The translations under genes and the position numbers were made by a program. 64,000 nt of DNA from a virus: positions 47,097 through 111,096 of IMG/VR virus record IMGVR_UViG_3300007623_000006. One strand, written 5' to 3'. Positions 15,416 to 38,813 of this stretch are shown here, piece by piece. Each line of letters starts with the position of its first letter. Positions within the stretch are counted from its first letter, which is position 1. The notes under the pieces are model-generated. The model was not told where the DNA came from, did not search any database, and was given only the letters and a program-made list of their open reading frames with translations.

Positions 15416-15416
15416 T

Positions 15417-23170: not shown

Positions 23171-23181
23171 GGAGTCACAAA

Positions 23182-23970
23182 ATGAAAGTATTAGTAAACA
23201 AGACATTTAACACTGAATATTTTTCAGAGTATTTAAATACAACATTAAAACCAAATTCAAAGGTATTTTCTTCAGGTGAGTTTAAAATATATGATAACGC
23301 AACTACAGGAACAACAGTTGTAGACGGAGTTTTTCCTCAAGTATTATTCGCACCTCAATCTTATTTAGATATTATTGATGCATTAAATACAGCTTCATAT
23401 AATAATACATTAGACCTAGCAGGTTTATCATTTGATTTAGTTATAAACACATTATACGCAACAGACAGAACATCAAGAAATTATATGATTGATTACTTAT
23501 TAGGTTTAGGTTTATGTAGTGCAACACAAGCATCACAAGCAAAAAACTTAGTTTCTGTTTTAGGTTCTTTTGACCCTGCAAATATTTTAGTAGAATACAA
23601 CTCAGTTGATGATGTATATTCTTATTCATTTAATACACCAGTTGAATTATTACAGCCGTATGATGTTTCTAACAATGTTGGTGAAAGTGGATTATCAGAA
23701 AAATTATATTTAGTGATGTTAACTCAAATATCTACTGCATATGGTGATGTTCTTAATGTTAATGGTGGAACTGGTTCATATTCTCCTGTTCATAAATTCT
23801 ATAACCCAGTTTTAGACACAACTGTATTACAGTCATCTTATATTGCAACAGAATTAGGTGATATTAATGACACTGAATCAAACCCAGATTTAAAATATGA
23901 CCATATGGATAAAATTGATTATATAGATAGTTTTAGAATGAGATTCAAACTTCCAAGAGTTATCGCATAA
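23182..23970 (+). CDS. B-family array protein B1, 262 aa
   Basis: First of seven B-family paralogues. All begin with a short strand of the form x-V/I-N-K-x-F-N-x-x-Y/F-L, have a helical middle with a L-x-x-G-x-x-T/S-x-x-E/Q-A motif, and end with Y-I/V-A-x-x-(8-15)-D-Y-I-D-x-F-x-(5)-L-P-R/K-x-I. B1 shows the ending DYIDSFRMRFKLPRVIA. No catalytic pattern or signal peptide is visible. It starts 11 bases after A1, so the A and B products may act as a pair. Confidence 0.75.
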   Translation: MKVLVNKTFNTEYFSEYLNTTLKPNSKVFSSGEFKIYDNATTGTTVVDGVFPQVLFAPQSYLDIIDALNTASYNNTLDLAGLSFDLVINTLYATDRTSRNYMIDYLLGLGLCSATQASQAKNLVSVLGSFDPANILVEYNSVDDVYSYSFNTPVELLQPYDVSNNVGESGLSEKLYLVMLTQISTAYGDVLNVNGGTGSYSPVHKFYNPVLDTTVLQSSYIATELGDINDTESNPDLKYDHMDKIDYIDSFRMRFKLPRVIA

Positions 23971-23999
23971 TAGCGACAAACTCTTAGGAGGGTTTAATT

Positions 24000-24500
24000 A
24001 TGGAAATAATAAACGGATATAATGGTGGCTTAAGAGTTACTCCACAAGATTGTTATGTTAGTTCAAATAATTTTGAAACATATAATGTATCTGGTGGTAG
24101 TAATAAGATTTATTTTTTTACTGATAAAAGTATAATTGATAATAATGTATTATACAATATAAACGATGAAGCTGATTTATTAAGTACATTCTCTGAAAAT
24201 TATGTTGGTTCTATTACAGGTTTTGGTTTAGATTTTTTATATAATACTAGTTTAAAGAAGAGAATAATTAAACAAAATCCTATTGATGCATTAAGATTTA
24301 CAAACGAAATAAATGGAACAATAGAATGGTGTGCTATAAGAGTAGCTACTGGTAAGTTTATTTTTTCTGATGAAATTGGTACATTTGATGTACCGTCATC
24401 TGTTAATTTAAATCAAACAAATGTAACTGCCGGTGATGAAAGTATAATGAATAGTCTAAAGTTTGAAATAAGAGATTTATCTGATGGAGAGTTGGTATGA
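24000..24500 (+). CDS. A-family array protein A2, 166 aa
   Basis: The most diverged A copy. It keeps the central strand (IDALRFTNEINGTIEWCAI) and the SDEIG variant of the DSIG motif, and ends with LKFEIRDLSDGELV. The N-terminal F-x-G-x-x-F-x-P segment is altered to YNGGLRVTP. AGGAGG precedes the ATG. The stop overlaps the B2 start (ATGA), so pairing is tight. Confidence 0.7.
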   Translation: MEIINGYNGGLRVTPQDCYVSSNNFETYNVSGGSNKIYFFTDKSIIDNNVLYNINDEADLLSTFSENYVGSITGFGLDFLYNTSLKKRIIKQNPIDALRFTNEINGTIEWCAIRVATGKFIFSDEIGTFDVPSSVNLNQTNVTAGDESIMNSLKFEIRDLSDGELV

Positions 24501-25447
24501 TTAGTATTAATAAAAATTTAGATTTACTTAACTCTGAATATGTATTTCAAAAGAACTCTATTGGAATGGATTATTATGATTATCCTAATAATATAAAGTT
24601 TACAACATTTAAAGAGTTTAGATTTAGAGGGTATTATATTGGAGGTTCGTCTTCATCTTCAATGGCAGGTTCAAGTGTATCAATGACAGTTAGTGGCTTA
24701 AATGTACATACCAATGAATGGGAATCAATTGCTGCTTGTGTATATGTTTACACTCTAGTTTCAAACGCGTGGGGAGTATATTTTTATTTAAATGGTTCTA
24801 GACAAGGAACTAACACTGTTAAAAATGAAAATGGTAGAATTATGTGTGGGACTGTAGACTTGGGTAGTGTTGAGGATTATTCTGAATATAAAGCATCTAT
24901 ATCTTCTTCTAAGGGATATGTAGGTTTAAGTTATTTTGACGCTATTGCTGGTAATGTATCATCATTTATTTGCAATCAATCTACATTGAGTATGTTAGAA
25001 TCACTTAATACTAAATTATACCAAGGAAATGTTGAAAATTATAGTACAAAATTCATACAAGATAATGATATTATAAAAGAATCTATGTTACAGAATGGTG
25101 ATTTGTCTGAAGAAGATAATAATTCTATAAAAATTTATAAAAAGAATGTTAATTTAATACATGAATTTGACTCGGACAATTGTTCTAATAAATTGATACT
25201 ACCTACCCCTCTTTTGCTTGACGTTACATATATTGAATCTGATGGACCATTTTATTTAATTTATTTAGTTCCAAAAACTATAATTAGAGAAGATAATAGT
25301 GAGAGTATAACTCACTTAAGTTATATGAAATTTAAAATTGGTTCAATTGATGACGATACGGCCGATATAAAATTAGATTATATAAATATAATAGATATGA
25401 TAGATAAACTTTCAATGAATGTTAAACTATCAAACATAATAAATTAG
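24497..25447 (+). CDS. B-family array protein B2, 316 aa
   Basis: Diverged and longer B copy. The N-terminal strand is ISINKNLDLLNSEYVF; residues 45-140 hold an extra Ser/Gly-rich beta segment not seen in B1. The C-terminal end (YMKFKIGSIDDD, then DYINIIDMIDKLSMNVKLSNII) keeps the family pattern. It overlaps A2 by four bases. Confidence 0.7.
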   Translation: MISINKNLDLLNSEYVFQKNSIGMDYYDYPNNIKFTTFKEFRFRGYYIGGSSSSSMAGSSVSMTVSGLNVHTNEWESIAACVYVYTLVSNAWGVYFYLNGSRQGTNTVKNENGRIMCGTVDLGSVEDYSEYKASISSSKGYVGLSYFDAIAGNVSSFICNQSTLSMLESLNTKLYQGNVENYSTKFIQDNDIIKESMLQNGDLSEEDNNSIKIYKKNVNLIHEFDSDNCSNKLILPTPLLLDVTYIESDGPFYLIYLVPKTIIREDNSESITHLSYMKFKIGSIDDDTADIKLDYINIIDMIDKLSMNVKLSNIIN

Positions 25448-25457
25448 GAGAGAATTT

Positions 25458-25967
25458 ATGAGAGTATTAAACTTTTATGGTACAACATCGTGTTTTGTAC
25501 CACAGAAAAATTCTTCTCTGCCGTTAGTAGAAGTAAACGCTACATATACAGGGAACAAAATGGTATTCTTTAAGGGTACTATTCCTTCGGTAGATGAATT
25601 GTATGAAATAATGTCAGAGGATGAACTAAGAATTACATATGGAGCAGATATAGTTGCAGATATTGATGGTCTTGAGTTTTCATACACACAAGATAATACA
25701 AATTTAAGAAGAACTATTGCTAAAAAAGCAGATGTTAAAGATTTACCTTACTTACAAGACGGTACAATCACATGGTGTGCAATTATTTTAAGAGAAGATG
25801 TTGCTACTACAGGAAAAAGTGCTATAATATATACTGACAGTATAGGTCTTAGAGAACAAGATGATAAATTTATTACACTTGAATCTATTACAGGTTTAGC
25901 AAATGGTACAAACTTATTAAGAGACTTTTCTATGATATTAACTGAAAAGTCAACTATGGAGTCATAA
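25458..25967 (+). CDS. A-family array protein A3, 169 aa
   Basis: A typical A copy with NFYGTTSCFVPQ at the start, FFKGTIPSVDELYEI, DGTITWCAIIL, YTDSIGL and LLRDFSMILTEKS in the family order. One base separates its stop from B3. No additional domain is present. Confidence 0.75.
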   Translation: MRVLNFYGTTSCFVPQKNSSLPLVEVNATYTGNKMVFFKGTIPSVDELYEIMSEDELRITYGADIVADIDGLEFSYTQDNTNLRRTIAKKADVKDLPYLQDGTITWCAIILREDVATTGKSAIIYTDSIGLREQDDKFITLESITGLANGTNLLRDFSMILTEKSTMES

Positions 25968-25968
25968 T

Positions 25969-26583
25969 ATGTTAGCAGTAAATAAATTTTTTAATAATAA
26001 TTATAATAAAGTTTTATTAACACATTTTGTTGATAATAATGTGTCTGATGGTATGTATCTAGTTACAGGTGAATTTCTTGACATGATAGATTTGTTAAAT
26101 TCTACTGAATATAATACTGGATTTACAAGTGAGCATGGTACTCTTGTTCAAGTAATTGAAGGTTTATTTAGAGGAAATATAACAGCTCAACAAATGTTAG
26201 ATGAAGGTCATATAACAGATACTGATGGAATTCAAAGAAGACAATTTGCTGGTTACAGTAGTTCTTATAAAACTACATTATATGACGACAATGACGGTGT
26301 TATGAAAATAGTATACACACAGCCATTATCAATCACACCAGGTTTTTATAGAAACGAAGTTGACGGAACTGTTAATAGTGATTTATATATTGTATTCTTT
26401 AATAATACTACTTGTAGTTACTATAAACCAAGTGATAATTCAAACAGAATTATGACATCATATGTTGCATTTAGTGTTACAGAACAAGGTATGGGTGGTG
26501 ATATTGAACTAGACCATACAGATTTAATTGATTATTTGGATGCATTTGAAATTCAAGTTGCATTACCAAAAGAAATAGTATAA
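25969..26583 (+). CDS. B-family array protein B3, 204 aa
   Basis: The shortest B copy; it lacks much of the N-terminal half found in B4-B6. It has the AVNKFFNNNYNKVLL start, the helical middle, a segment with SDLYIVFF and the ending YVAFSVTEQGMGGDIELD then DYLDAFEIQVALPKEIV. The compact size shows which parts are core to the family. Confidence 0.75.
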   Translation: MLAVNKFFNNNYNKVLLTHFVDNNVSDGMYLVTGEFLDMIDLLNSTEYNTGFTSEHGTLVQVIEGLFRGNITAQQMLDEGHITDTDGIQRRQFAGYSSSYKTTLYDDNDGVMKIVYTQPLSITPGFYRNEVDGTVNSDLYIVFFNNTTCSYYKPSDNSNRIMTSYVAFSVTEQGMGGDIELDHTDLIDYLDAFEIQVALPKEIV

Positions 26584-26597
26584 GAGGAGTTTTATAA

Positions 26598-27149
26598 ATG
26601 AAAGCAAGTAATATTTTTGGAATGGCGTTTCACTTTATGCCAAGAGATTTGAGTGCAAGAAGTTCAGATACTGAAATTAGAAGAGGTGAAAATATAGTTA
26701 CACAAAATAATGTAATTTATCTTATGACAGGTGTTATGCCAGATACTGATACTTTATATGATATTAATAATATGGATGAGTTTGAGGCTGCATATGGTTC
26801 ACAACAAATTTCTAAATTTGAAGATAATGAGTTCACTTATTATTATGATAGATTAAAAAAGATTAGAACTATTCAAAAAACAGTTGACGCATTAAATTTT
26901 ACACACGATGTAGATGGTGCTGTTACATGGTTTGCAGTTAAGATGACAGATGTAGATGGTGTTCAGTACGCTGAAGATGGTGTGACTGAAGAACAAACAT
27001 TTATATTTAGTGACAGTGTTGGTACATGGTTAGATACTGATAGAGCAATGGTGCTTTCAAATAAAGAATCACAAGTTGCTGGTTCTGAAAATATTTTAAA
27101 AGATTTCGTATTAGTTATTCAGGATAAATTAACTGACGAAACTGTATAA
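26598..27149 (+). CDS. A-family array protein A4, 183 aa
   Basis: A longer A copy with NIFGMAFHFMPRDLS, MTGVMPDTDTLYDI, DGAVTWFAVKM, FSDSVGTW and LKDFVLVIQDKLTDE in order. The extra 12 or so residues lie between the central strand and the DSVG motif. It is followed by three consecutive B genes rather than one. Confidence 0.75.
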   Translation: MKASNIFGMAFHFMPRDLSARSSDTEIRRGENIVTQNNVIYLMTGVMPDTDTLYDINNMDEFEAAYGSQQISKFEDNEFTYYYDRLKKIRTIQKTVDALNFTHDVDGAVTWFAVKMTDVDGVQYAEDGVTEEQTFIFSDSVGTWLDTDRAMVLSNKESQVAGSENILKDFVLVIQDKLTDETV

Positions 27150-27161
27150 TAGGAGTTAATT

Positions 27162-28352
27162 ATGTCAAGGTTAGTTATTAATAAGAATTTTCAAAAGAAA
27201 TATCTTAGTACTGCTTATAAAACACTAGTTGCTCCTGATGTTCCTATGCACATTTATGGGTATGAACACCCAAATGCTGGGTATAGAGGTTATTTTTATT
27301 TTGCATATACTAATGTACATGAGTTTTTGGATAGGTTGGATTATATACATAATTCTTCATACATTGAATATAACAATTATAGTTCTCCTAATGCATACTA
27401 TAGACTATTAGACGCGTTTAATGGTTCATATTGGTATGGGATTACTGGTTCGGCGGTAAGACAAGATACAGGCCTCCCAAGTAATTTATTTTTAGTAAAT
27501 GAAAGTGTGCTAAAAGTTATAGATAAAATTAATATAAAGTTAAGAGAAGGTTTAGATACATTACCAAAGGTAACAGATTATTATGCAAATTATTCTATAT
27601 CATCTTTAAGTGAAGAAGACCAAAATATATTTATGTCAAAAGAAATAAATCCGTATTGGTTAGGTCAGACATTTTTATCAAATGATAAGTCTATAAGACA
27701 TAGTGCATTTCAAGCATTTGCATATATTGGTGTAATAACAGAAGAAGAAGCAGACTTAATGAATAATATGTTTATTAGAATAAAAAAATATAGTTCTGTT
27801 GAAGATAGAAGTACTTTACTTTTTGGTGAATCTTTTATGAGGTCAGACGAGTACAACTTAGAATACAATGCTGAATCTAACACAATTGATTATGAATTAC
27901 AATCTACTGAATCTGTATATAAAGTTTGTGTTGAGAATGAGTACGATAATCTAGTTAATAATGGTTATGTTCAAAGTGTTAACAACCCTCTAAATGAACA
28001 ATTATATATAATAGATTTTGCTTATAATGACCATAAGTTTGATAGAACTAACCATGACTTTGGTACTACAGATTATTATTATGTATATAATAATAGTATT
28101 TCGTCTACTACAAGACTTGTATATAGTCATGGTGGAAGTGCTGTTGTTGATTTATATTCTGCAGCGTATTTAAAGACACCAATTAGAAAATTTTATAATG
28201 AACAAAATGGAAAAGTAGTTCCGCAGTTATCTTATATAGCATTGTCTGTTTCGGAAACTGGTCAAGGTGCTGATATTGAATTTGATAAAATAGATGAGAT
28301 TGAGTATATTGACAATCTTAAATTTAGATTTAGAATACCAAAAGAATACTAG
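27162..28352 (+). CDS. B-family array protein B4, 396 aa
   Basis: The largest B copy. It starts with RLVINKNFQKKYLSTAY and keeps the family ending (YIALSVSETGQGADIEFD, then EYIDNLKFRFRIPKEY), but has about 130 extra residues in the middle, rich in Tyr, Asn and Ser. Two internal segments resemble the helical middle of the family, so it may contain a partial internal duplication. Confidence 0.75.
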   Translation: MSRLVINKNFQKKYLSTAYKTLVAPDVPMHIYGYEHPNAGYRGYFYFAYTNVHEFLDRLDYIHNSSYIEYNNYSSPNAYYRLLDAFNGSYWYGITGSAVRQDTGLPSNLFLVNESVLKVIDKINIKLREGLDTLPKVTDYYANYSISSLSEEDQNIFMSKEINPYWLGQTFLSNDKSIRHSAFQAFAYIGVITEEEADLMNNMFIRIKKYSSVEDRSTLLFGESFMRSDEYNLEYNAESNTIDYELQSTESVYKVCVENEYDNLVNNGYVQSVNNPLNEQLYIIDFAYNDHKFDRTNHDFGTTDYYYVYNNSISSTTRLVYSHGGSAVVDLYSAAYLKTPIRKFYNEQNGKVVPQLSYIALSVSETGQGADIEFDKIDEIEYIDNLKFRFRIPKEY

Positions 28353-28361
28353 GAGATTAAA

Positions 28362-29090
28362 ATGGCAAACATAGTAATAAATAAGAATTTTAATAAGAAG
28401 TATCTTTGGAGATATGTCGACCAAACATTTAAAATAAAAACAACATACAGTAGATGGATTATAACTAATGATACATTAGATGCAACAGGAATAAACAGTT
28501 CATATAGAACTGTATTCTTGACAAATCAGACTACATTATCATTATTTGATAAAATATCTTCTCACTATAAAAACATTGATATGGGAGATTTACAAGCATA
28601 TGATTTTTTAAGTACAATAATCAATACAATGTTACAAACAGATGACGATACATATTACATTAGAGCAATGGACAAACTTGTAGCAGACGGCGCATTGACA
28701 CAAGAAGAAGCTAATTCAATATATGTTAATAAATTAACAGATGTTGTTTCTATTAATGCATCTGTTAATATTGACGGTGTTATATCATTTAGTATAATTG
28801 AACCTAACAAACTGTATAGAAGATACGAGCAAACTGTTGATAACCCTACTAATGAACAAATGTATTTATGCTTTATTCCAGAAGAGAGTGGGTATTTTAT
28901 AGGGTCTAACTATTATTCAACTCTATATCATACTGCAGTTGAAAATGAAAATGTTAAACAAAGTTTAAGATATGCTGCTATGTCTATTGGTGACACTGGT
29001 ACTGAAGATATCGTGTTTGATTATACTGGTATAATTGATTATTTAGATACATTTGAATTTAATATTAATCTTCCAAGAGTAATCTCTTAG
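28362..29090 (+). CDS. B-family array protein B5, 242 aa
   Basis: It starts with IVINKNFNKKYLWRYVD, very close to B6 (TVNKNFNKKYLYRYTE) and B4. The helical middle holds DGALTQEEANS, and the end is DYLDTFEFNINLPRVIS. No A gene separates it from B4 or B6. The close N-terminal similarity of B4-B6 points to recent tandem duplication. Confidence 0.75.
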   Translation: MANIVINKNFNKKYLWRYVDQTFKIKTTYSRWIITNDTLDATGINSSYRTVFLTNQTTLSLFDKISSHYKNIDMGDLQAYDFLSTIINTMLQTDDDTYYIRAMDKLVADGALTQEEANSIYVNKLTDVVSINASVNIDGVISFSIIEPNKLYRRYEQTVDNPTNEQMYLCFIPEESGYFIGSNYYSTLYHTAVENENVKQSLRYAAMSIGDTGTEDIVFDYTGIIDYLDTFEFNINLPRVIS

Positions 29091-29100
29091 GAGGGTTGAT

Positions 29101-29871
29101 ATGAGACTAACAGTTAATAAAAATTTTAATAAAAAATATCTTTATAGATATACAGAATTGTTTTTTAACCAGCCAGAATTAATAACATATCATACAGGTT
29201 CATCATCTATGATATTTAGACATCCATCTATAATTTTTTCAGATTATAAAAATGACACTACAACTACAGAATGGGCATATTACAGATTTATTTGTAATCA
29301 AGATTTTATAGATGTTATGGATATAGTTAATAATATGGACAATCCAAAAAGTTATATAATTAATCAAACGCTTGTTTCTGGTAGTGATATATATAGAGAC
29401 GCAATGCTTCAGCAATTATTTGATGATAATATTATAACACAATCACAAAGAGAAAATAGTAAATTTTATCCGATTTACGGTGCACATGATTATTTATCTT
29501 CATTTAAATATAATGAAGAAAAAAATGATATTTATGTTAATTATTCACATAATACGATTTTTTCACTTGATTATAAAATAGATAATAACATCGAAGAAAA
29601 TTTATTTTTTGTATATCTTTCTAGAACAACTCCTATGTTTAGTGAAAATAAAGATTACAGTTTTCAAGTAGCTGCATATGGTGCACCTTATCATGATGTT
29701 GTTGTTCAAAGAGGTGTTGGGTTTGAGAAAAATGACGGTTCTACTAAAACTGTCGTTCCATATATAGCATTAGATATGAAATCAGACCTTGGGTTTGATT
29801 ATATTGATAAGATTACACATATAGATAATTTTTCATTTAACATTAATTTTATAAAAGAGTACACTCTTTAA
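29101..29871 (+). CDS. B-family array protein B6, 256 aa
   Basis: Last B copy before the oxygenase. The N-terminal 16 residues nearly match B5; the C terminus (YIALDMKSDLGFDYIDKI, then HIDNFSFNINFIKEYTL) is a diverged version of the family ending in which LP is replaced. After its stop there is a middle-type promoter, so the long array transcription unit may end here. Confidence 0.75.
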   Translation: MRLTVNKNFNKKYLYRYTELFFNQPELITYHTGSSSMIFRHPSIIFSDYKNDTTTTEWAYYRFICNQDFIDVMDIVNNMDNPKSYIINQTLVSGSDIYRDAMLQQLFDDNIITQSQRENSKFYPIYGAHDYLSSFKYNEEKNDIYVNYSHNTIFSLDYKIDNNIEENLFFVYLSRTTPMFSENKDYSFQVAAYGAPYHDVVVQRGVGFEKNDGSTKTVVPYIALDMKSDLGFDYIDKITHIDNFSFNINFIKEYTL

Positions 29872-29884
29872 TTACTTTTTAAAA

Positions 29885-29907
29885 TTTAAGTGAACTTATG
29901 TTATACT
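29885..29907 (+). promoter_or_regulatory. middle-type promoter TTTAAG-N11-TATACT for the oxygenase operon
   Basis: TTTAAG at 29885-29890, 11 bases, then TATACT at 29902-29907, preceded by TG one base upstream. The start codon of the oxygenase is 27 bases downstream. It is the only promoter of this class inside the late structural region, which suggests that the oxygenase and its partner are made earlier than the surrounding virion proteins. Confidence 0.6.
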
Positions 29908-29934
29908 AAACATATTTTCACTTAAAGGCTCATA

Positions 29935-30747
29935 ATGTCAAACACAAACGACATAAAACTATACAACACAGATGAAATTTTCGCATTAAATCCTGATATG
30001 AATATTAATATTGTTAGTGCTGACGGTAAGCCAATACTTATTATAGATGATTTTTATAAAAATCCTGATTTAGTTAGAGATTTAGCAATAAACACCCCAA
30101 TACCTTCAACTAACCGGTCATATGCGTCTGGATATCCTGGTAAAAGAGGGTTATTAGGCGGTTTTATTGATAATAAACAATTTTATGAAAAAGTCAGTGA
30201 TATACTTTTAAAAAGCTTAGATATACACCATTTTGTTAAGGAAGGTACTATTTTAGACAATGGTGGTGACTTTATTGTAAATGTATTTGATAGTGAAGAG
30301 AATATATCAAATGAGAATAGATTTACCTTACCACATACTGACCCTAGTTTAGTTGCATCAGTTATATATTTAAACAAAGAGGATGAAGACCCGGTAGGAA
30401 CTGGTATATATAAACATAAATCTGGATATTCTTTCAAACCAAACAATGACGCACACTTATTTTGGATATGTAAACAAGAAGATGATTTACCACACAATTA
30501 TATGGAAGGTTTACAAACAGTAATAAAATCAATTGACTTAGCTGAAAAACAAGGTAACCATGTATTAGATGGTAACGATGAATGGGAATGTATTGCTCGT
30601 TCAACTGGTGCTTATAATCAATTTATAGGGTATGTTGCAGGTATGTTTCATTCACCATTAATAGACTACAATATATTTAAAGACAAAAATTATAAGAGAA
30701 TTAACCAAGTTATTTTTTGGGACCCAAGCAGGAGATATAATAAATGA
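29935..30747 (+). CDS. 2OG-Fe(II) oxygenase-like protein (DUF6445-like)
   Basis: A 270-aa protein whose layout follows DUF6445 proteins of the 2-oxoglutarate/Fe(II) oxygenase superfamily: DDFYKNPDLVR (about 38-48), SGYPGKRG, iron ligands in LPHTDPS (His134, Asp136) followed by VIYLN, GTGIYKHKSG, and a distal FHSPLID (His239) with Arg255 as the likely 2OG-binding residue in RINQVIFWDP. Relatives hydroxylate amino acid side chains or halogenate; the substrate here is unknown. Its stop overlaps the next start (ATGA), a strong sign of joint expression with the U32-like protein. Good ribosome binding site (AAAGG). Confidence 0.75.
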   Translation: MSNTNDIKLYNTDEIFALNPDMNINIVSADGKPILIIDDFYKNPDLVRDLAINTPIPSTNRSYASGYPGKRGLLGGFIDNKQFYEKVSDILLKSLDIHHFVKEGTILDNGGDFIVNVFDSEENISNENRFTLPHTDPSLVASVIYLNKEDEDPVGTGIYKHKSGYSFKPNNDAHLFWICKQEDDLPHNYMEGLQTVIKSIDLAEKQGNHVLDGNDEWECIARSTGAYNQFIGYVAGMFHSPLIDYNIFKDKNYKRINQVIFWDPSRRYNK

Positions 30748-31856
30748 TAACAGATATCAAAGAAATTGAAACATATTCGTGGACAACACCATATCACAAG
30801 GAAAAGGGTGCTTTTAGTATACCATATTATTCAGGTATAACACACCCTGAAATGAATTTTGACCATAATTTTGAAAGTTTTTTAGATGAATACAGTGATT
30901 GGATTCATGACATATATTTTACACCACCAACAGTTCTACCATTTGAGAATGATTCAATGGGAATGGGTAAACAAATGACTGACGATGAAAAAGATGCAGT
31001 ACTTGATAAATTGTTAGGTTACCAAGAAAAATATGGTATTCCAATTTCAGCAACATTTAATGATACAAGTATTTTAAAAACTGAAAAGCAACTGAAACAG
31101 TTTATTGAAAACTTCCGACCACTATACGAAAAAGGGGTTAGAAACATTACACTTGCTCCAGTTATATGGATGTTAACTGGTGAGATTAAAAAAGCATATC
31201 CAGACTTATATATTAAGAATACTGTATTAACAAGAGTTAGAGACGGACAAATGTTTTGGGACCACGCTGAAGCAGGGTTTGATTATATTAACATTGATAG
31301 AGAGTTAATGAGAAATGAAGATGGATTAAAAAGTGTTAAAAAAGCACAATTAAAATTTTATGAAGAAACTGGTAAATATATTCCAATTGCTTTACTAGCA
31401 AATGAGAGTTGTAGAGGTAAATGTCCGGTAATGGATGAACATTATCATTATAACCAAAACAGTCATAAAAATGATAATGTACCTTATTTTGGTACACCAA
31501 TATCACAATTCACTTGCCCTCATTGGCAAAAAACGGTACCTGGATATGTATTAAAGCAAGCAAACTTTGTACCACTAAATAGTCAAATAGACTGGGTTAT
31601 GCAATATATCGATGTATTTAAGATGCATGGTAGAGCAACACCAGACTTAATGATGAATAGTTTAGGATTTATTAATGAATTTATTAGAGATGATGGTATC
31701 GAAATTCCATTTGAACCTGAATTATACACAAAATGGTTAAAAGTTATTAAAAACTGTAAATTTCAATGTTATGATTGTAATTTATGTGGTCAGGTCGAGG
31801 ATTCAATAGAAAAAACAAACCAAAAATACTTAATTAATCCTACATTATTTCATTAA
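30744..31856 (+). CDS. U32-peptidase-like Fe-S protein, possible O2-independent hydroxylase
   Basis: A 370-aa protein with TIM-barrel-like rhythm. Residues 160-240 resemble the U32 core: a strand KNTVLTRVRDG, then GFDYINIDREL, and ALLANESCRGKCPVMDEH. Seven cysteines (223, 227, 258, 338, 342, 345, 348) form clusters CxxxC, a lone Cys in FTCPHW, and CxxxCxxCxxC, well able to hold a 4Fe-4S cluster. U32 relatives such as UbiU/UbiV, TrhP and RlhA carry out hydroxylation without oxygen; others are called peptidases. The spacing is not identical to theirs. Four-base overlap with the oxygenase suggests a shared substrate. Confidence 0.6.
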   Translation: MITDIKEIETYSWTTPYHKEKGAFSIPYYSGITHPEMNFDHNFESFLDEYSDWIHDIYFTPPTVLPFENDSMGMGKQMTDDEKDAVLDKLLGYQEKYGIPISATFNDTSILKTEKQLKQFIENFRPLYEKGVRNITLAPVIWMLTGEIKKAYPDLYIKNTVLTRVRDGQMFWDHAEAGFDYINIDRELMRNEDGLKSVKKAQLKFYEETGKYIPIALLANESCRGKCPVMDEHYHYNQNSHKNDNVPYFGTPISQFTCPHWQKTVPGYVLKQANFVPLNSQIDWVMQYIDVFKMHGRATPDLMMNSLGFINEFIRDDGIEIPFEPELYTKWLKVIKNCKFQCYDCNLCGQVEDSIEKTNQKYLINPTLFH

Positions 31857-31859
31857 AAG

Positions 31860-31867
31860 TATAAATA
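31860..31867 (+). promoter_or_regulatory. T4-type late promoter motif TATAAATA
   Basis: Exact TATAAATA directly after the U32-like gene and 17 bases before the A5 start. It restarts late transcription for the last A/B pair and the genes beyond it. Confidence 0.6.
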
Positions 31868-31884
31868 TCGTAAAAAGGGTTGTG

Positions 31885-32397
31885 ATGTTCACTTCAAATT
31901 TTTACGGTATTCCTTATTACTTAATGCCAACACAAAACCCAATTATCAATACAGGTACTCAACCTAGTACAATCGCAGAAGATAATGTTTGGTTGTATTT
32001 TTTTAGTGGTGTTATGCCTGAATCATATGTATTATCTGACATCACCAACTTAGGGGAACTTATAGCATTTTACAACCCAGTATCTGTTGTACCCGACTTA
32101 ACTATGGAGTATCGATATGATACAGATGTTAAGCAAAAGCAAATGTCAATCTTATTAGAAGAACCTTTAACTGCATCATTTAGAAAAAATGGAGTAGTTT
32201 CATGGATGGCAGTTGTAGGAAGACTTGATGAAACAGATGACACTAGATTTATGTTTTTTAGTGATGGAATTGGAAGTGTAGATGAAAAATACAAACCTGT
32301 TATAATAGATAACTTTAATGGTGTTATTGGTGAAGAGTACAATATATTAAAAGTTGACTTTATTATAAGAGATTTACCTAGTAGTGAGATTATATGA
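31885..32397 (+). CDS. A-family array protein A5, 170 aa
   Basis: Last A copy, separated from the others by the hydroxylase genes. It retains NFYGIPYYLMP, FFSGVMPESYVLSDI, KNGVVSWMAVV, FFSDGIG (Gly replaces Ser of DSIG) and LKVDFIIRDL. A GTG three bases upstream could also start translation; AAGGG at 31875-31879 fits this ATG better. Its stop overlaps the B7 start. Confidence 0.75.
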   Translation: MFTSNFYGIPYYLMPTQNPIINTGTQPSTIAEDNVWLYFFSGVMPESYVLSDITNLGELIAFYNPVSVVPDLTMEYRYDTDVKQKQMSILLEEPLTASFRKNGVVSWMAVVGRLDETDDTRFMFFSDGIGSVDEKYKPVIIDNFNGVIGEEYNILKVDFIIRDLPSSEII

Positions 32398-33149
32398 GAT
32401 TAGTAGTTAACAAAAAAACAAAAAAAGAATTATTCACACATTTAACTGACATTATATTTCCTACAGACGACTACTGGTTATCTGATACTATATCGGTTTA
32501 TACTGACTTAAGCACAAGCACCTCAACTGAAAATGTACCATATCAACTATTCTTATGGGTACCTGAAACTTTTATTGAAACACTTGAAATTATTAATACT
32601 ACAGTAAGAGAAAACAAGATAAACATAGGTGTTGATTTAGGTTTATTTTTTAATACACTTTACTTTGGTGGTGATACTAGTAGAATAGGTGCATTAAACT
32701 TATTAGTGGAAAAATATATAATAACAGAACAGAACCGTAATACAATTATAAGTCTTTTTTCACATTTTACTAATTTTGACCCTAATTTCTTTTATAGGGA
32801 ATTTGATAAATCAATAGATAGATACAAGTATTATTATAGTGGAACTATGGGCTTAAAAAACACATATAAAATTGCAAATAACTTGACATTAGATAAAATG
32901 TATGTTATAATACCTGTATTAACACCAATTAGTTTTAGTGAAACTGGGCCAATACCAGGTACTAATGGTTTATATAGTTCAATTATACCACTTTATTCTC
33001 CTAAACTAGGAAGATTAGTTAGTCATTGCTCATATATGGGTCTAGAAGTAACAGAGATAGACGAGAACTTCTTTTACTCTGAAACTGAAACTTACACGCA
33101 ACTTAAACCTTTTGAGTGGTATATGACAATTCCTGATACGGTTGTATAA
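32394..33149 (+). CDS. B-family array protein B7, 251 aa
   Basis: It starts with RLVVNKKTKKELFTHLTD and carries the helical middle (LVEKYIITEQNRN). The C-terminal region (CSYMGLEVTEIDE, then WYMTIPDTVV) is the most diverged of the family. It overlaps A5 by four bases and the next gene by one, so the A5-B7 pair leads straight into the RCC1-propeller module. Confidence 0.75.
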   Translation: MRLVVNKKTKKELFTHLTDIIFPTDDYWLSDTISVYTDLSTSTSTENVPYQLFLWVPETFIETLEIINTTVRENKINIGVDLGLFFNTLYFGGDTSRIGALNLLVEKYIITEQNRNTIISLFSHFTNFDPNFFYREFDKSIDRYKYYYSGTMGLKNTYKIANNLTLDKMYVIIPVLTPISFSETGPIPGTNGLYSSIIPLYSPKLGRLVSHCSYMGLEVTEIDENFFYSETETYTQLKPFEWYMTIPDTVV

Positions 33150-33976
33150 TGGAAGAAATATTAGATAAAATAACATCTTTAATAAGTGAAGATGAAGATA
33201 AATTTTATACAAATCTAGCAGCTCATAAAAGTGGGTTTGATACAGATTACAAAGAAATTATATCAAAATACCTATTACATAAAGATATAGTAAAAGAACA
33301 CATATTTAAACAAAAACCACACTTAGCAAAGGGGTTTGTTAAAAGCGAAGGTAAGTTAGATAAGTTTATTAATCACATACCTGTAGTACATAATTTAGAC
33401 TTATATGATGATAGTGTTATAAGGGCAGATTTAAATAGTAATAACTTACACTTATATGCTCAAAAGTTTAATATTTTAAGTGATTTAACAAAAGAAAAAT
33501 TTTACTTATTAATTGAGTTGAGTAATATAAGTGTTGTTATTAATAACGATTTAAGAATACCTGTTAAATACCTAAAACCTAACTGTACTATATTGTATAT
33601 TAATTATATGGCAAATAAACCAGACTTTGAAGATTTCTTAAGCCAATTTGATAACTCAAAATATATACTTCAAAATTATCATCACTTAAAACACCCTAAC
33701 ATAACATCATATGTTATGAGATATGTAACAATGATAACAAAAGAAAGTTTAGAAAATCTTATAAATGTAGGATTCACATTAAGAGATATATTAACACATA
33801 GACCACAATTTTTACCATTATCATTGGATTATATAAATACAATAGATGATTTAAAAATTGTTTTAAAATGTGTCGACACAACAACATCTGTAGAAGTAAT
33901 AAACCATTTATATACCAAACTACCACATTTTAAAACAATTATTGATGAAAGAATAAAAAGGTTGATGAATGGCTAG
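33149..33976 (+). CDS. unknown protein, 275 aa
   Basis: Not recognised. A mostly helical basic-acidic protein, unlike the beta-rich neighbours, with regularly spaced helices in its second half (LENLINVGFTLRDILTH, then IDDLKIVLKCVD) that could be a helical-repeat scaffold. No enzyme motif is visible. It overlaps both neighbours by one and eight bases. An assembly chaperone for the following propeller protein is possible but unsupported beyond position. Confidence 0.7.
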   Translation: MEEILDKITSLISEDEDKFYTNLAAHKSGFDTDYKEIISKYLLHKDIVKEHIFKQKPHLAKGFVKSEGKLDKFINHIPVVHNLDLYDDSVIRADLNSNNLHLYAQKFNILSDLTKEKFYLLIELSNISVVINNDLRIPVKYLKPNCTILYINYMANKPDFEDFLSQFDNSKYILQNYHHLKHPNITSYVMRYVTMITKESLENLINVGFTLRDILTHRPQFLPLSLDYINTIDDLKIVLKCVDTTTSVEVINHLYTKLPHFKTIIDERIKRLMNG

Positions 33977-35831
33977 TATATATGATTTTTATGATGTTAC
34001 TGATAATGTGTTTGTAATAAACTCAGACGAATATGACACAATTGTATTTAGAAGCCTATTAGATGATGAATTATCTTTAGATAGTAGTAGGCCTGATTTA
34101 ATATTTGACGATATAAGAAACGACGATATATACGATTATTTTTATAAACTAAACACTTTTATTGATTCTAGACAAGACAACTTTACAACTTTACCATTAG
34201 ATAAAATTGAGAGAACAGGTAGTAGCTATTCTGTACTAATGACAAATGATGGTGATGTTCAGTGGCAAAAGTTAGCAAAACCAATCACAGGTACAATCCG
34301 ATTAAGTGACACAGTTGACCAAAGTCTTATATTTTTTGATAATACTTTAGTTGAAGGTTCATTCTCGTTGTTAGAAAACTTAACAATTGACGCACACACA
34401 TTTTTGGGTAACTTTACTAGAGCAAGAGCATATACACCGACATATTATCAAGACTATGGTGAAACAAATTGGAATTCAGCAGAAATTAAGATTAATGGTA
34501 AATTTGAGGATGTATGCGATACTTTACCTGACAAGTCAGACTATGCAAATGGTCAATTAACATTTATATCAAAAAATAGCACAATAGACGAAATGTTAGA
34601 TTTAACAGTTATAGATGTAGATGGAAATGATGTTAAAGTAAGTGGCGTTAATAGTAAGTTAGAAATCGCTAAAATAAACAATGTTAGAAAAACAATTTGT
34701 GCTTCTAGATACGACATTTCGGCAATTGACAGTGATGGTAACATTTTAATATGGGGTAGTTATACATCATCATATTATCAACCACCTATTAATGCTAGTG
34801 CTTTTACAAGCATAAATGCAGGTTACTATGGTTTTACTGGAGTAACTGATGAGAACAAAGTGTATGTATGGGGTAAAAATAACCTTTTTGTTAAGTATTT
34901 AATTGACACCATTCCAACTGGTAATGATTATATTGATAGTGATATGGGATTAAACTTTTGTGTCGCTTTAAAAGAAGATGGGACTTTACAGCATTGGGGG
35001 TATACAACATATTTATCACAAAGTATGATACCAGATAAAATATTCACAAAGCATGTATGTGCATATAAAATATTATTTGCTCTTGATAGTGATGGTTATT
35101 TAGGTGCGTATGGAAAGTATGATTTTTATAAACTTATGGCAAACTTACCAAAAGAAAAAATAATAGATTTTGATGTTAGATACTCTACTGGAGTATATTT
35201 AAGAGATGACGGTACTGTAGGTCAATGGGGTAATGTTACAGGGTTCACTATACCAGATTTTGGTGGTAAAACGATTGTTAAAGTATTTGCTGGTAAAGTT
35301 ACTTTACACGCATTAGCAGATGACGGTACACTTTTTTCATGGGGTGATTGGTACACATATAACAATACACCTGAAAACATATCATGGGGTGATGTATGTG
35401 GTCATAATTATGTTAGTGCTGGAATTGATACAAGTGGTAACATTTATACTTGGGGTAGAGACAGTTTATCTACATACGATAGTTATATGGTAAATAAAAA
35501 ACCTGACACAGATGGTATTATAAGTGGAAAAGTAGTTTCAGGGTATGAATACGACATCACATTAGAAAGTGGTATATCAGTAGGTGACATATATCTTGTA
35601 TCATCGAACTTATATTATACTGAAACTGAAGATACTACAAACATTGAAGACTACATACTTTTACCAAAAAAAGAAGTTACAATGGATGGTACTGAATTTG
35701 TTATTACTTATGATAAATTAGATATAAATACAAATGCTATAGGTCTATTATATGAATTTAATAACAGATTAGAAAGAGTGTATAAAATACAAGTAGACCT
35801 AACTAAGTCTGCTTTAGGAGAAGATGTATGA
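33969..35831 (+). CDS. RCC1-type beta-propeller virion protein, 620 aa
   Basis: After an adaptor-type N terminus (about 110 residues) and a linker domain, residues about 235-515 hold seven repeats with the RCC1 signature, an alpha/beta turn ending in a W/Y-G: IWGSYTSS, VYVWGKNN, LQHWGYTT, LGAYGKYD, VGQWGNVT, LFSWGDWY and IYTWGRDS. That predicts a seven-bladed propeller. A beta-rich domain follows. Propellers on phage tails can mediate binding. The gene overlaps the preceding one by eight bases and the next by four. The sister protein is at 37044. Confidence 0.75.
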   Translation: MASIYDFYDVTDNVFVINSDEYDTIVFRSLLDDELSLDSSRPDLIFDDIRNDDIYDYFYKLNTFIDSRQDNFTTLPLDKIERTGSSYSVLMTNDGDVQWQKLAKPITGTIRLSDTVDQSLIFFDNTLVEGSFSLLENLTIDAHTFLGNFTRARAYTPTYYQDYGETNWNSAEIKINGKFEDVCDTLPDKSDYANGQLTFISKNSTIDEMLDLTVIDVDGNDVKVSGVNSKLEIAKINNVRKTICASRYDISAIDSDGNILIWGSYTSSYYQPPINASAFTSINAGYYGFTGVTDENKVYVWGKNNLFVKYLIDTIPTGNDYIDSDMGLNFCVALKEDGTLQHWGYTTYLSQSMIPDKIFTKHVCAYKILFALDSDGYLGAYGKYDFYKLMANLPKEKIIDFDVRYSTGVYLRDDGTVGQWGNVTGFTIPDFGGKTIVKVFAGKVTLHALADDGTLFSWGDWYTYNNTPENISWGDVCGHNYVSAGIDTSGNIYTWGRDSLSTYDSYMVNKKPDTDGIISGKVVSGYEYDITLESGISVGDIYLVSSNLYYTETEDTTNIEDYILLPKKEVTMDGTEFVITYDKLDINTNAIGLLYEFNNRLERVYKIQVDLTKSALGEDV

Positions 35832-36123: not shown

Positions 36124-37044
36124 ATGGATTTATCACAATATTTTTCAAGTAGTGATAAAGTATATGTAGTAAGAGATGGTCAAATTGAACCTATTGAAAG
36201 CTCAGGTAATTTGTTACAAACAGACCTCATATTAAACGATAATACATTAGATAGAGCAAAAGCATTTGATAGAAATGTTAATATGTTATATCAAAAAATT
36301 CAAACTAAAATGGATAAATCTGTTATTTTTAGTGAAGGTCAAATAGAGTGTGATGCTCCTCACGGGCATATATTAATGAGTGAAGGAGTTGGTCAGAACC
36401 CTATTTGGGTAAGTCCTGATAGTTTTATGAGTTCACTTTCAGAATTAGAGTTAATATATAACGAAGGTCTACTTTATGATAATACAACAATAAATGCTGA
36501 TTTATTTAGTTCAGTTATTGGTGGTACAGTTGAAGGTAATATCACATTAAGAGATACAAGTAATGAAATAGTATTTAACTCAATTGATTTACCATTAGTT
36601 GTTGATTATACAATAAAAGCAACCGTTACACCACTAGTTAGAACAGTACTAGGATATGGTCAAGGTAAAATTGTGATTGAAGGAACAGATTTTGATGATA
36701 CATATCAACTTTATATCAGTTCAGATGTAGGACTTGTTAAAATAGATATAACTGATACAGGTATAGAAGGGTCAAACACAACAGTTTACACTGATAGTAG
36801 TTATACTGGTGCATATAAGGCATACTTATTTAAACTTGACATTTATAGTGATATATCTAGTAGCGAGACATTCGACTTAAAAAGACAAAACGAAGAACAC
36901 TTAGAACCTAATGGAAATGACTTGATTATATCATATTATAGAAAAGAGTGTAATGGTACAATTTTTAATAGCAAACTATCAGGTTCGGTTGGTTTAATTA
37001 TAAAATCGATAGAGTATAACTTTAATAAGAATGAGGAAGAGTGA
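36124..37044 (+). CDS. fibre or baseplate protein, 306 aa
   Basis: The first 110 residues share a layout with the propeller protein at 37044: a short strand set, a KAFDRNVNMLYQKI helix and a G-x-I-L-M/V-S-x-G-x-G-x-x-P-V/I-W motif (GHILMSEGVGQNPIW). The remainder is beta-rich and acidic, without propeller repeats. It may be a short relative that has lost, or never had, the propeller. Its stop overlaps the next start. Confidence 0.65.
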   Translation: MDLSQYFSSSDKVYVVRDGQIEPIESSGNLLQTDLILNDNTLDRAKAFDRNVNMLYQKIQTKMDKSVIFSEGQIECDAPHGHILMSEGVGQNPIWVSPDSFMSSLSELELIYNEGLLYDNTTINADLFSSVIGGTVEGNITLRDTSNEIVFNSIDLPLVVDYTIKATVTPLVRTVLGYGQGKIVIEGTDFDDTYQLYISSDVGLVKIDITDTGIEGSNTTVYTDSSYTGAYKAYLFKLDIYSDISSSETFDLKRQNEEHLEPNGNDLIISYYRKECNGTIFNSKLSGSVGLIIKSIEYNFNKNEEE

Positions 37045-38813
37045 TGAGAAATGGATATAACTTAGTAGATACTAATGGTACAGTTATAAACTTAAATTCT
37101 AGTGATTATTATAGTTATAATGAAAATGATACTATTGTTGGTAGTGATATTGTTGACTTACAAACAGAAGATGTAATATTTAGTACATATGATGCAAGAA
37201 GAGGTTCATATTCTGCACTAAGAAATATTAATGTATTATTTAACAAAGCAATTAACAAAGCACCAAAAAATATGATATCATTAAACAGAATAACACCAGG
37301 AAATAATGGTGACATTTTAGTTTCACAAGGACCAGGAGTATCACCTGTATGGAAAGCATATAGTACAATATTTCCAGATTTAGTGTATCATATTGACGGT
37401 GACGAAAGTATAATATTAAGCAGTAATACATTTATTCAAGAAGAGTTTAAAAAAGGTACAATAGTTGATAATACATATACATCATATACAGATGACATTT
37501 TAGAAACAAACAAGTTTGAAAATGTGCAAAGTTGGTTTAGTCATAAAGTAGAATTGACTACAAAACCAAAAGAATTTGAAATTATTGATGAAGATAGTGA
37601 CATGATTACTGCAGCACCAACAGCAGGTATGGTATATAACAAACCAACTAGATATATTGTTGTTGATAAGTTTGGTAATGTACATGATGGTGTAGTTGCA
37701 CCTTATAAAAATATATCAAATAATGGTTTTAATATAAAAAAAGACGATATAAATTATACATTAGATTGTATTAAATGTTATTTAGCAGACTATACAGTAT
37801 TTACAAGTATAACAGAAAATAATGTAGATAATTATGTTGAAAACGACATAAACTCGTTAAAGTTATTAAATAAATACAATATAGATATTTGGGGTGAGAG
37901 TAATAATTTTAGTGCAAGTTTAACAGTTACCTCAGATGTGAAGCAAGTTAGTGTAGGTGACAATTTTGGTGCTATTATAGGCAGTGATAATTTTGTTAAA
38001 GTATTTGGTGACAATAATTTTAATCAAATAACTAATAAACCAACAGATGAAGTTTCACAGGTATCTTGTGGTAAAAGGCACTTATGTGCTGTAAGAGTTG
38101 ATGGAACTCTTATATCTTGGGGTGATAACACTTATAATCAAATAAGTGAAACACCACAAGGGACATTTAAAAAAGTAGTATGTACAGATTATGGTACTGC
38201 TGGTATAACAACAAATAATGAGTTGATTATTTGGGGTGAAACATTTATAAAATATGATGATATTTCATATAGTACACTTGAAGTTATAGATATTGCTTGG
38301 GGTGAAAAGTTCTTTATTGTTAAAACACCAGATTTAAAATTATTAGGTTTTGGTGACGATTCATACAATCAATTATCAAATATACCAGATATGGAGTTTG
38401 AAAGTTTTGATTGTGGTAAGTATCACGCGGCAGGTGTATCAAGTACTGGTATCTTACAGGTATGGGGAAGTAATAATAATTTACAAACTGATTTACCTGA
38501 AGATACAAGTATTTTAGGATATAAAAAAGTTGAATGTTGTGAGTATAGTACAGTTGCTATGAAAAATGACGGAACTCTTATATCTTGGGGAAACGATTCT
38601 ATAGGTATAGTTTCTAATACACCTACCACCGTTGTATATGATGAAGTTGTGTCAAAATACAATAATGTTATAGGTCTTAAAGACGGTGAAATATATATAA
38701 CTGAAAAGTACAACAAAAGAAATGTTTCAGGTTCATTTTTCTCTACTAAGATAGAGTTTATAAATGATGGTACTGTAGTAACAGATTTAAAAATACATTT
38801 AGAAAAACAATAA
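37044..38813 (+). CDS. RCC1-type beta-propeller virion protein, 589 aa
   Basis: Second propeller protein. The N-terminal adaptor contains a GDILVSQGPGVSPVWK motif matching the 306-aa neighbour. From about residue 265 there are seven RCC1-like turns: IDIWGESN, VKVFGDNN, LISWGDNTYNQI, LIIWGETF, LLGFGDDSYNQL, LQVWGSNN and LISWGNDS. A GTG three bases upstream is possible, but ATG overlapping the previous stop with GAGGAAG upstream is favoured. The blades are more regular than in the 620-aa paralogue. Binding partner is unknown. Confidence 0.75.
   Translation: MRNGYNLVDTNGTVINLNSSDYYSYNENDTIVGSDIVDLQTEDVIFSTYDARRGSYSALRNINVLFNKAINKAPKNMISLNRITPGNNGDILVSQGPGVSPVWKAYSTIFPDLVYHIDGDESIILSSNTFIQEEFKKGTIVDNTYTSYTDDILETNKFENVQSWFSHKVELTTKPKEFEIIDEDSDMITAAPTAGMVYNKPTRYIVVDKFGNVHDGVVAPYKNISNNGFNIKKDDINYTLDCIKCYLADYTVFTSITENNVDNYVENDINSLKLLNKYNIDIWGESNNFSASLTVTSDVKQVSVGDNFGAIIGSDNFVKVFGDNNFNQITNKPTDEVSQVSCGKRHLCAVRVDGTLISWGDNTYNQISETPQGTFKKVVCTDYGTAGITTNNELIIWGETFIKYDDISYSTLEVIDIAWGEKFFIVKTPDLKLLGFGDDSYNQLSNIPDMEFESFDCGKYHAAGVSSTGILQVWGSNNNLQTDLPEDTSILGYKKVECCEYSTVAMKNDGTLISWGNDSIGIVSNTPTTVVYDEVVSKYNNVIGLKDGEIYITEKYNKRNVSGSFFSTKIEFINDGTVVTDLKIHLEKQ

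What the first reader, a model, noticed from the sequence alone, without database searches (positions are those of the whole stretch)
29885..31856. O2-dependent oxygenase overlapping a U32-like Fe-S protein: possible dual hydroxylation system
A DUF6445-like 2OG-Fe(II) oxygenase (His134, Asp136, His239) overlaps by four bases a U32-like protein with seven clustered cysteines. Established: U32 relatives UbiU/UbiV, TrhP and RlhA hydroxylate without O2, and TrhP has an O2-using counterpart (TrhO) for the same product. Inference: the phage may carry both routes to one modification so that it works at any oxygen level. The pair has its own middle-type promoter inside a late structural region, so it may modify the A/B virion proteins around it.
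Basis: partly seen in the sequence, partly recalled or inferred. Interest (0 to 1): 0.78.

Follow-up and report, generated by a model that had tools for sequence, protein, structure and literature searches.

The report
Phage Fe-S enzyme beside tail fibres
A viral gene pair codes for an iron-dependent oxygenase and a distant relative of bacterial iron-sulphur hydroxylases; the second belongs to a large family found mostly in phages, usually near tail-fibre-region genes and other tailoring enzymes, which hints that phages chemically decorate their own particles.

Summary
The pair is real. A (29935-30747) is a DUF6445-family 2OG-Fe(II) oxygenase-like protein (H134, D136, H239 invariant in 41/41 rows). 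B (30744-31856, ATGA overlap) is a divergent U32-superfamily barrel: best fold match U32 protein MK0906; profile-profile E 1.1e-5 against 13 U32 proteins. It fails the Pfam U32 cut-off and the usual four-Cys spacing; instead seven cysteines are invariant in 38/38 rows and in two further paralogues of the same phage record. In 40 non-redundant loci it comes with a methyltransferase domain (38/40) and touches a redox enzyme (32/40: 2OG oxygenase, halogenase or radical SAM), mostly near a tail-fibre-region gene (36/40). 'Two routes to one modification' is not supported: partners are interchangeable, and 0/80 DUF6445 loci carry B. Most likely B is an Fe-S hydroxylase-like step in tailoring a late product, perhaps tail fibres, with A as one exchangeable oxygenase. 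Catalysis, metal and substrate are untested. The 'middle promoter' is not shown; a palindrome unique in the window lies there.

The parts
29935..30747 (+). Gene A, 270 aa, DUF6445-family 2OG-Fe(II) oxygenase-like protein
   Evidence: Pfam PF20043 E 1.3e-11; PHROG 1644 E 5.5e-28; 2OG oxygenases lead the Foldseek list, best E 8.9e-4
30334..30342 (+). H134-x-D136, probable iron ligands of A
   Evidence: invariant in 41/41
30649..30651 (+). H239, probable third iron ligand of A
   Evidence: invariant in 41/41
30697..30699 (+). R255, probable 2-oxoglutarate-binding arginine of A
   Evidence: conserved in 90% or more of 41 rows; role recalled from the superfamily
30744..31856 (+). Gene B, 370 aa, U32-like TIM-barrel protein with seven invariant cysteines
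   Evidence: Foldseek best match 5d88 E 4.9e-7; VIA Z 15.1; hhalign E 1.1e-5; seven Cys 38/38
30744..30747 (+). ATGA overlap of A stop and B start
   Evidence: sequence
31410..31424 (+). C223-x3-C227 of B (NExC-x3-C motif)
31515..31517 (+). C258 of B
31611..31634 (+). D290-VFKMHGR297 of B, aligned with the U32 KIEGR motif
   Evidence: D290, K293, H295, G296, R297 invariant in 38/38; aligned
31755..31787 (+). C338-x3-C342-x2-C345-x2-C348 of B
   Evidence: also invariant in two paralogues of the same record
29885..29926 (.). Palindrome (two 18-nt arms, 6-nt centre) upstream of A, covering an extended -10-like TGTTATACT
   Evidence: function inferred

Best explanation
B belongs to a phage-borne branch of the U32 superfamily. 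It most likely holds one or two Fe-S clusters on its seven cysteines and inserts an oxygen atom, as UbiU/UbiV, TrhP and RlhA are thought to do. In most relatives the product would then be O-methylated by a fused or adjacent Methyltransf_24 domain, in the way YrrN/YrrO (U32) and YrrM (TrmR) of one Bacillus subtilis operon hydroxylate and then methylate tRNA. Around this core each phage lineage has plugged in other C-H-modifying enzymes: 2OG oxygenases such as A, flavin halogenases, or radical-SAM proteins. The cassette lies on the same strand just behind tail-fibre-region genes, so the first candidate substrate is a tail-fibre or other late virion protein, decorated before assembly. In this phage A and B overlap and would act on the same late product in successive or neighbouring steps, not as O2-dependent and O2-independent copies of one step. 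Shown: homology, conserved residues, gene order, overlaps. Inferred: metal binding, hydroxylation, substrate, order of steps.
For: U32 protein as best match by two aligners (E 4.9e-7, next 1.9e-5; Z 15.1, next 13.4); profile match E 1.1e-5 over 298 columns, score 30.25 against at most 8.95 for five unrelated profiles and 4.32 for 30 column shuffles; E 2e-7 when the two paralogues are added. Seven Cys invariant in 38/38 and in paralogues 23% identical to B. Methyltransferase in 38 of 40 loci: 29 inside the B ORF, 9 as next gene; 15 of 16 sampled domains hit PF13578; best, though non-significant, PDB match YrrM, E 0.075. Redox gene touching B in 32 of 40, within six genes in 34; tail-fibre-region gene c0 within six genes in 36. 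A phrog_274 oxygenase-like gene overlaps B by 4 bases in 27 of 60 loci. Same record: a fibre-like C-terminus directly before paralogue B1.
Against: No catalysis, cluster or substrate has been tested. Cysteine loops have pLDDT under 50, so cluster geometry is unknown. Cysteine spacing differs from the U32 motifs in PMC6747719 (passages). Paralogue B2 alone does not match the U32 profile (E 0.23) and B1 only weakly (E 4e-4). In the window no c0, c1 or c2 relative is found, no Methyltransf_24 in the 111-kb record, and the neighbours are not proven virion proteins. Six of 40 loci show no recognised redox neighbour. In syn9, 18 proteins of the tail-fibre region that I scanned include halogenases and oxygenases but no B, so those enzymes do not need B.
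Confidence: 0.45

Rival explanations
1. The cassette makes or decorates a small molecule or glycan (a halogenated, hydroxylated, methylated metabolite, or sugars on host or virion surfaces), as was proposed for a cyanophage halogenase/2OG cluster.
For: PMC7824862 (passage seen) proposes this for the S-SSM6a cluster; S-SSM7 carries oxygenase, halogenase, heptose and carbamoyltransferase genes together; 17 of 80 DUF6445 loci hold a halogenase. Sugar-gene-like clusters (read by eye) do occur on the other strand near B: c8 in 22, c16 in 10, c34 in 4 and c39 in 3 of 89 loci.
Against: Those sugar-like genes lie on the opposite strand, beyond the cassette; same-strand recurrent neighbours are tail-fibre-region genes and oxidative enzymes.
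Confidence: 0.25
2. B modifies tRNA or rRNA during infection, as TrhP and RlhA do, with the methyltransferase acting like TrmR.
For: Characterised relatives act on RNA (PMC6599085 passages); the U32 plus O-methyltransferase pairing matches the yrrMNO operon; weak YrrM match.
Against: Halogenases and many 2OG oxygenases do not fit an RNA pathway; tail-fibre-region position; ARAGORN found no tRNA gene in the window or in the rest of the record.
Confidence: 0.15
3. One reading: A and B are aerobic and anaerobic routes to the same hydroxylation.
For: Both are hydroxylase-like and touch each other; B-oxygenase adjacency recurs.
Against: Interchangeable partners, 0 of 80 DUF6445 loci with B, three B paralogues with one DUF6445 gene, records with B are cyanophages.
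Confidence: 0.07
4. B has lost catalysis and is a structural or metal-storing barrel in the virion.
For: PHROG files A's family under head and packaging.
Against: Besides the cysteines, polar residues such as N159, R186, D290, K293 and R297 are invariant in 38/38; B is fused to a methyltransferase in 29 of 40 loci.
Confidence: 0.08

Closest known systems
UbiU/UbiV (O2-independent ubiquinone hydroxylation; peptidase U32 family)
   Same: U32-type barrel by fold rank and profile; conserved cysteines; paralogues side by side (two more B-type genes lie near each other in this record)
   Different: UbiU CX6CX16CX38C and UbiV CXnCX12CX3C, four Cys each (PMC6747719 passages); B has seven: C-x3-C-x30-C and C-x3-C-x2-C-x2-C; no Pfam hit; phage-borne
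TrhP1/TrhP2 with TrmR (Bacillus subtilis yrrO, yrrN, yrrM)
   Same: U32 protein(s) genetically joined to a SAM O-methyltransferase that methylates the new hydroxyl (PMC6599085 passages)
   Different: Methyltransferase similarity weak (E 0.075); no Methyltransf_24 found in the window's record; no RNA link seen
DUF6445 (PF20043); PHROG 1644, called 'minor coat protein'
   Same: A meets the Pfam cut-off and shares the invariant HxD...H
   Different: A overlaps B; none of 80 other DUF6445 loci shows B
Cyanophage halogenase/2OG-oxygenase gene runs (syn9, S-SSM6a/S-SSM7)
   Same: Same kinds of tailoring enzymes, in syn9 directly behind tail-fibre genes
   Different: U32 is not mentioned in the main text of PMC3037559 or PMC7824862 (term counts 0); none of 18 syn9 proteins scanned is a B

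Membership tests
Peptidase U32 superfamily (PF01136) | U32-type TIM barrel | tested here: met
   First among the Foldseek matches is U32 MK0906 (5d88): E 4.9e-7; VIA Z 15.1, 3.3 A over 213 residues; model pLDDT 75. Other TIM barrels follow at Z 13.4 and below, so the margin is modest.
Peptidase U32 superfamily (PF01136) | Sequence-profile similarity to known U32 proteins | tested here: met
   hhalign E 1.1e-5 (single comparison), probability 61.5%, 298 columns, against 13 U32 proteins; controls and shuffles far lower; E 5.1e-4, probability 31%, with only four E. coli proteins
Peptidase U32 superfamily (PF01136) | Score above the Pfam cut-off | tested here: not met
   No hit for B; 1 of 38 relatives at E 0.019; none in the record
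Peptidase U32 superfamily (PF01136) | Four-cysteine motif CX6CX15CX3/4C or the UbiU/UbiV variants | tested here: not met
   B spacing 3, 30, then 3, 2, 2; motif definitions from PMC6747719 passages
Peptidase U32 superfamily (PF01136) | [4Fe-4S] cluster and hydroxylation | not testable with these tools
   Cysteine loops under pLDDT 50
DUF6445 (PF20043) 2OG-Fe(II) oxygenases | Score above the Pfam cut-off | tested here: met
   45.3 bits vs 24
DUF6445 (PF20043) 2OG-Fe(II) oxygenases | HxD...H triad and a C-terminal Arg | tested here: met
   H134, D136, H239 41/41; R255 90% or more
DUF6445 (PF20043) 2OG-Fe(II) oxygenases | Double-stranded beta-helix fold | tested here: inconclusive
   Leading Foldseek hits are mostly 2OG oxygenases (best E 8.9e-4, probability 0.95) but TM only about 0.2-0.5; pLDDT 76
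Dual O2-dependent/O2-independent hydroxylation pair (TrhP/TrhO kind) | The two genes travel together | tested here: not met
   0 of 80 DUF6445 loci carry B; of 89 B loci, DUF6445 touches B in L005, L007, L008 and the window. Other oxygenase families do adjoin B.
Dual O2-dependent/O2-independent hydroxylation pair (TrhP/TrhO kind) | Same product from both enzymes | not testable with these tools
   needs biochemistry
Moron (self-contained phage insert) | Own promoter, own terminator, foreign composition | tested here: inconclusive
   Largest gap and a unique palindrome upstream, but no plus-strand terminator-like site and GC 0.304 within the listed genes' 0.24-0.34

The most novel reading that the evidence does not exclude
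Many tailed phages, common ocean cyanophages among them, encode a dedicated Fe-S hydroxylation machine (a seven-cysteine U32 branch) that, with exchangeable methyltransferase, halogenase, radical-SAM and 2OG-oxygenase modules, installs hydroxyl, methoxy or halogen groups on tail-fibre proteins: a post-translational layer of virion chemistry that could tune receptor binding and would explain why these phages carry halogenases and oxygenases at all.
Probability: 0.3. Interest if true: 0.92.

Novelty: new variant of a known kind. Interest (0 to 1): 0.72.

Why it matters
The role of the many 2OG oxygenases and flavin halogenases in marine phages has been guessed at as DNA repair, 2-oxoglutarate signalling, antibiotic protection or metabolite and capsule decoration (passages of PMC3037559, PMC2984593 and PMC7824862). 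This work ties them to an unnamed, mostly viral U32-like Fe-S candidate enzyme and to tail-fibre-region genes, which turns the open question into a simple test: look for modified residues on fibre peptides of laboratory cyanophages. It would also add a new cysteine architecture to the U32 superfamily, whose oxygen donor is unsettled (PMC6747719 and PMC6599085 passages).

Tried and rejected
Direct sequence routes to the PDB gave nothing: phmmer of A, none up to E 1; of B, only chance rows at E 0.05 or worse; a six-row profile of the B family, none at E up to 5. Pfam and NCBIfam scans of B and 38 rows gave only scattered weak hits. B as a radical-SAM protein was dropped: A4 against the radical-SAM neighbour profile scored -0.8. 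Defence role: PADLOC gave nothing for A, B and B1; a KwaB hit of B2 at E 0.001 covers 81 residues and is read as chance, and the pVip hits of two radical-SAM ORFs as generic radical-SAM similarity. A link of the window's flanking genes to c0, c1 or c2 was sought by HMM and hhalign and not found; relatives of flanking genes 32394 and 33149 were sought in viral contigs with short patterns and not found, so an empty site could not be examined. A fibrinogen-like fibre association was tested and is modest: 4 of 89 B loci, 0 of 80 DUF6445 loci, 0 of 60 phrog_274 loci, none in the window. Literature: DUF6445, 0 papers; the listings showed no title on the B family (open-licence PMC only; I did not open most of these papers).

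Limits of the counts: the 80 viral loci kept are those most like the window protein, of at least 526; gene calls in loci are my own greedy ORF choice; the labels oxygenase, halogenase, radical SAM and methyltransferase were given to clusters from one representative each. Oxygenase clusters c20, c28, c29 and c35 lie under their Pfam cut-offs, and the phrog_274 member scanned had no Pfam hit at E 0.1, so that family is called oxygenase-like from residues and profile only; c30 (cupin or oxygenase) was left out of the oxygenase count. P-SSM3 (L001) has a frame break inside the methyltransferase; it counts as fused and as next gene. The 40-locus counts include the window. DUF6445 loci were found with 8-residue patterns of A, so their shared motif is biased. 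The genome-contig scan used two short patterns, so 'mostly viral' is a statement about that scan. Sugar-gene and fibre-like labels of unscanned proteins are by eye.
Full report
What is there. A (29935-30747) and B (30744-31856) are consecutive plus-strand genes sharing ATGA. They lie in a tight run of plus-strand genes; the 63-base gap before A is the largest among the 28 genes listed from 18.8 to 44 kb and holds a palindrome with 18-nt arms (16/18 paired), the only one of that quality in the 64-kb window. It covers an extended -10-like TGTTATACT, but promoter-like sites are no more frequent than chance and this motif does not recur above chance, so an own promoter is possible, not shown, and nothing marks it as 'middle-type'. 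The window is G000:C1:47097-111096 of a 111,096-base virus record with PHROG matches to SbcC/SbcD-like proteins, a clamp loader and a DnaB-like helicase. The flanking genes form two interleaved paralogous families without database names.

A. Pfam DUF6445 at 45.3 bits, PHROG 1644. In 41 aligned rows H134, D136 and H239 are invariant and R255 nearly so. The model (pLDDT 76) finds mostly 2OG-Fe(II) oxygenases at modest scores. The 'minor coat protein' label of PHROG 1644 is therefore doubtful: SSSM7_134, ACG-2014j gp097 and syn9 gp52, all so labelled, match the same family HMM (E 3e-59, 6e-31, 3e-27), though syn9 gp46, also so labelled, did not.

B as a U32 relative. No Pfam or NCBIfam family reaches its cut-off. 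With an alignment of 38 rows from the window and viral or MAG loci, AlphaFold2 gave a barrel (pLDDT 75.1) whose first Foldseek match is the U32 protein MK0906 at E 4.9e-7, ahead of MTHFR at 1.9e-5; VIA ranks it first too (Z 15.1 vs 13.4). Independently, profile-profile comparison with 13 U32 proteins fetched from E. coli K-12 and plasmids gave score 30.25, E 1.1e-5, probability 61.5%, over 298 columns, with GIDVFKMHGR on the U32 GVxSxKIEGR motif; five unrelated profiles scored at most 8.95 and 30 column shuffles at most 4.32. These E-values are for single comparisons. So B is U32-like in fold and probably descent, but not a standard member: the pattern C223-x3-C227-x30-C258 plus C338-x3-C342-x2-C345-x2-C348 differs from CX6CX15CX3/4C and the UbiU/UbiV variants (PMC6747719 passages). 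The seven cysteines are invariant in 38 of 38 rows.

The family. tblastn finds B in 123 phage records, all with Synechococcus, Cyanophage or Prochlorococcus names and some of them duplicate GenBank/RefSeq entries, each over at least 80% of its length. In a tree of 40 rows, 29 methyltransferase-fused and 10 separate proteins each form one side of a well-supported branch, with the window's B on a very long branch between or outside them (root unknown, long-branch warning given). L005 and L007, which also adjoin DUF6445, lie deep in the fused group, so the B-DUF6445 pairing probably arose more than once.

The neighbourhood. In 40 non-redundant loci (window included) a methyltransferase domain lies inside the B ORF in 29 and is the next gene in 9; the exceptions are the window and L113, whose contig ends. 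The enzyme touching B is a 2OG oxygenase in 11, a halogenase in 13, a radical-SAM protein in 10, and at least one of these in 32; within six genes, in 34; six loci show none. Within six genes c0 occurs in 36, c1 in 34, c2 in 32. The Syn33 member of c0 is its 'sericin 1 precursor-like' gene, a few genes behind annotated tail fibres; P-HM2 and ACG-2014j have a gene of that name in the same place. The halogenase representative hits PF04820 at E 1e-100, the radical-SAM one PF04055 at 4.5e-9, the separate methyltransferase PF13578 at 3.1e-8.

A probably misnamed oxygenase. The gene overlapping the cyanophage B-methyltransferase by four bases is annotated DNA endonuclease V in Syn33 (the P-SSM3 member matches PHROG 274). 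The family's 28 aligned members keep H97-x-D99, H150 and R161 in 28 of 28, and its profile matches oxygenase-like cluster c20 at 99%; the P-SSM3 member has no Pfam hit at E 0.1. PMC2984593 says that no denV homologue is found in the cyanophage genomes it covers (passage), while PMC3037559 lists denV (passage). Starting from this gene, 27 of 60 loci have B ending three bases past its first base (in one more, L209, the contig end cuts off B) and the other 32 show no B in the stretch held. Starting from A's family, 0 of 80 loci show B, 17 a halogenase and 14 a c14-type oxygenase. Hence the oxygenases look like exchangeable parts, not fixed partners of B.

The rest of this phage. The other 47 kb holds two more B paralogues, G000:C1:973-1974 (333 aa, E 8e-17) and 2670-3626 (318 aa, E 1e-8), just behind a fibre-like C-terminus and before three radical-SAM genes. 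They are 23% identical to B yet keep all seven cysteines. Added to the B alignment they raise the U32 match to E 2e-7 over 110 columns; alone, B1 reaches E 4e-4 and B2 0.23. The fibre-like end resembles ACG-2014j gp098 (E 2.5e-4) and P-HM2_102 (E 3e-4), both annotated hypothetical, which lie just behind B or its DUF6445 gene in those phages; 'fibre-like' is my reading. No Methyltransf_24 or 2OG-FeII_Oxy_5 match was found in the record, a weak c18-type oxygenase hit lies at 14633-15421 (E 6e-4), and ARAGORN found no tRNA.

How it probably works. U32 relatives are needed for hydroxylation of tRNA, rRNA and ubiquinone precursors; TrhP depends on prephenate, and in B. subtilis two U32 genes share an operon with the methyltransferase that caps the new hydroxyl (PMC6599085 and PMC6747719 passages). 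The phage U32-like protein with its methyltransferase domain (D145, D173, D174, N176 invariant in 16 of 16; their likeness to metal ligands of O-methyltransferases is recalled) repeats this pairing, with a weak match to YrrM itself (E 0.075). The simplest reading is hydroxylation by B, methylation where the domain exists, and further oxidation or halogenation by the exchangeable partner, on a late product. Gene position makes a tail-fibre protein the first candidate; a small molecule or glycan, as proposed for the S-SSM6a cluster (PMC7824862 passage), is the main rival.

Observation good; 'U32' right in kind; 'dual route' not supported for the reasons; virion modification plausible and extended here. 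Papers: PMC6747719, PMC6599085, PMC3037559, PMC7824862, PMC2984593 and PMC10452541 were seen as passages only; all others as search listings.

Noticed in passing
L249:973-1974 and L249:2670-3626 (own record, outside the window): Two further B-type paralogues with all seven cysteines, behind a fibre-like C-terminus.
   Followed up: yes
L249:4308-7671 and 7671-8174 (own record, outside the window): Three radical-SAM genes in a row, followed by a 167-aa protein with a CCGTGTCGTG stretch that could be a modification substrate.
   Followed up: partly
L001:13697-14203, L002:13704-14201, L243:15415-15933: Cyanophage genes annotated DNA endonuclease V, or of that family (PHROG 274), have a 2OG oxygenase signature; several 'minor coat proteins' are DUF6445 proteins.
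   Followed up: yes
L243:7482-17661 (syn9): Behind the tail-fibre genes lies a near-continuous run of two halogenases and many oxygenase-like genes, most overlapping by a few bases.
   Followed up: partly
29885-29926: A palindrome unique in the window around a -10-like site upstream of A.
   Followed up: partly
22655-33149: Two interleaved paralogous gene families: 22655, 24000, 25458, 26598, 31882 and 23182, 25969, 27162, 28362, 29101, 32394 (24497 weakly).
   Followed up: partly
33969-35831 and 37041-38813: Two RCC1-repeat proteins, possible beta-propeller adhesins.
   Followed up: no
L001:11983-13700 (P-SSM3): The B-methyltransferase gene has a frame break in its methyltransferase part and carries no annotated gene in the record.
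   Followed up: no
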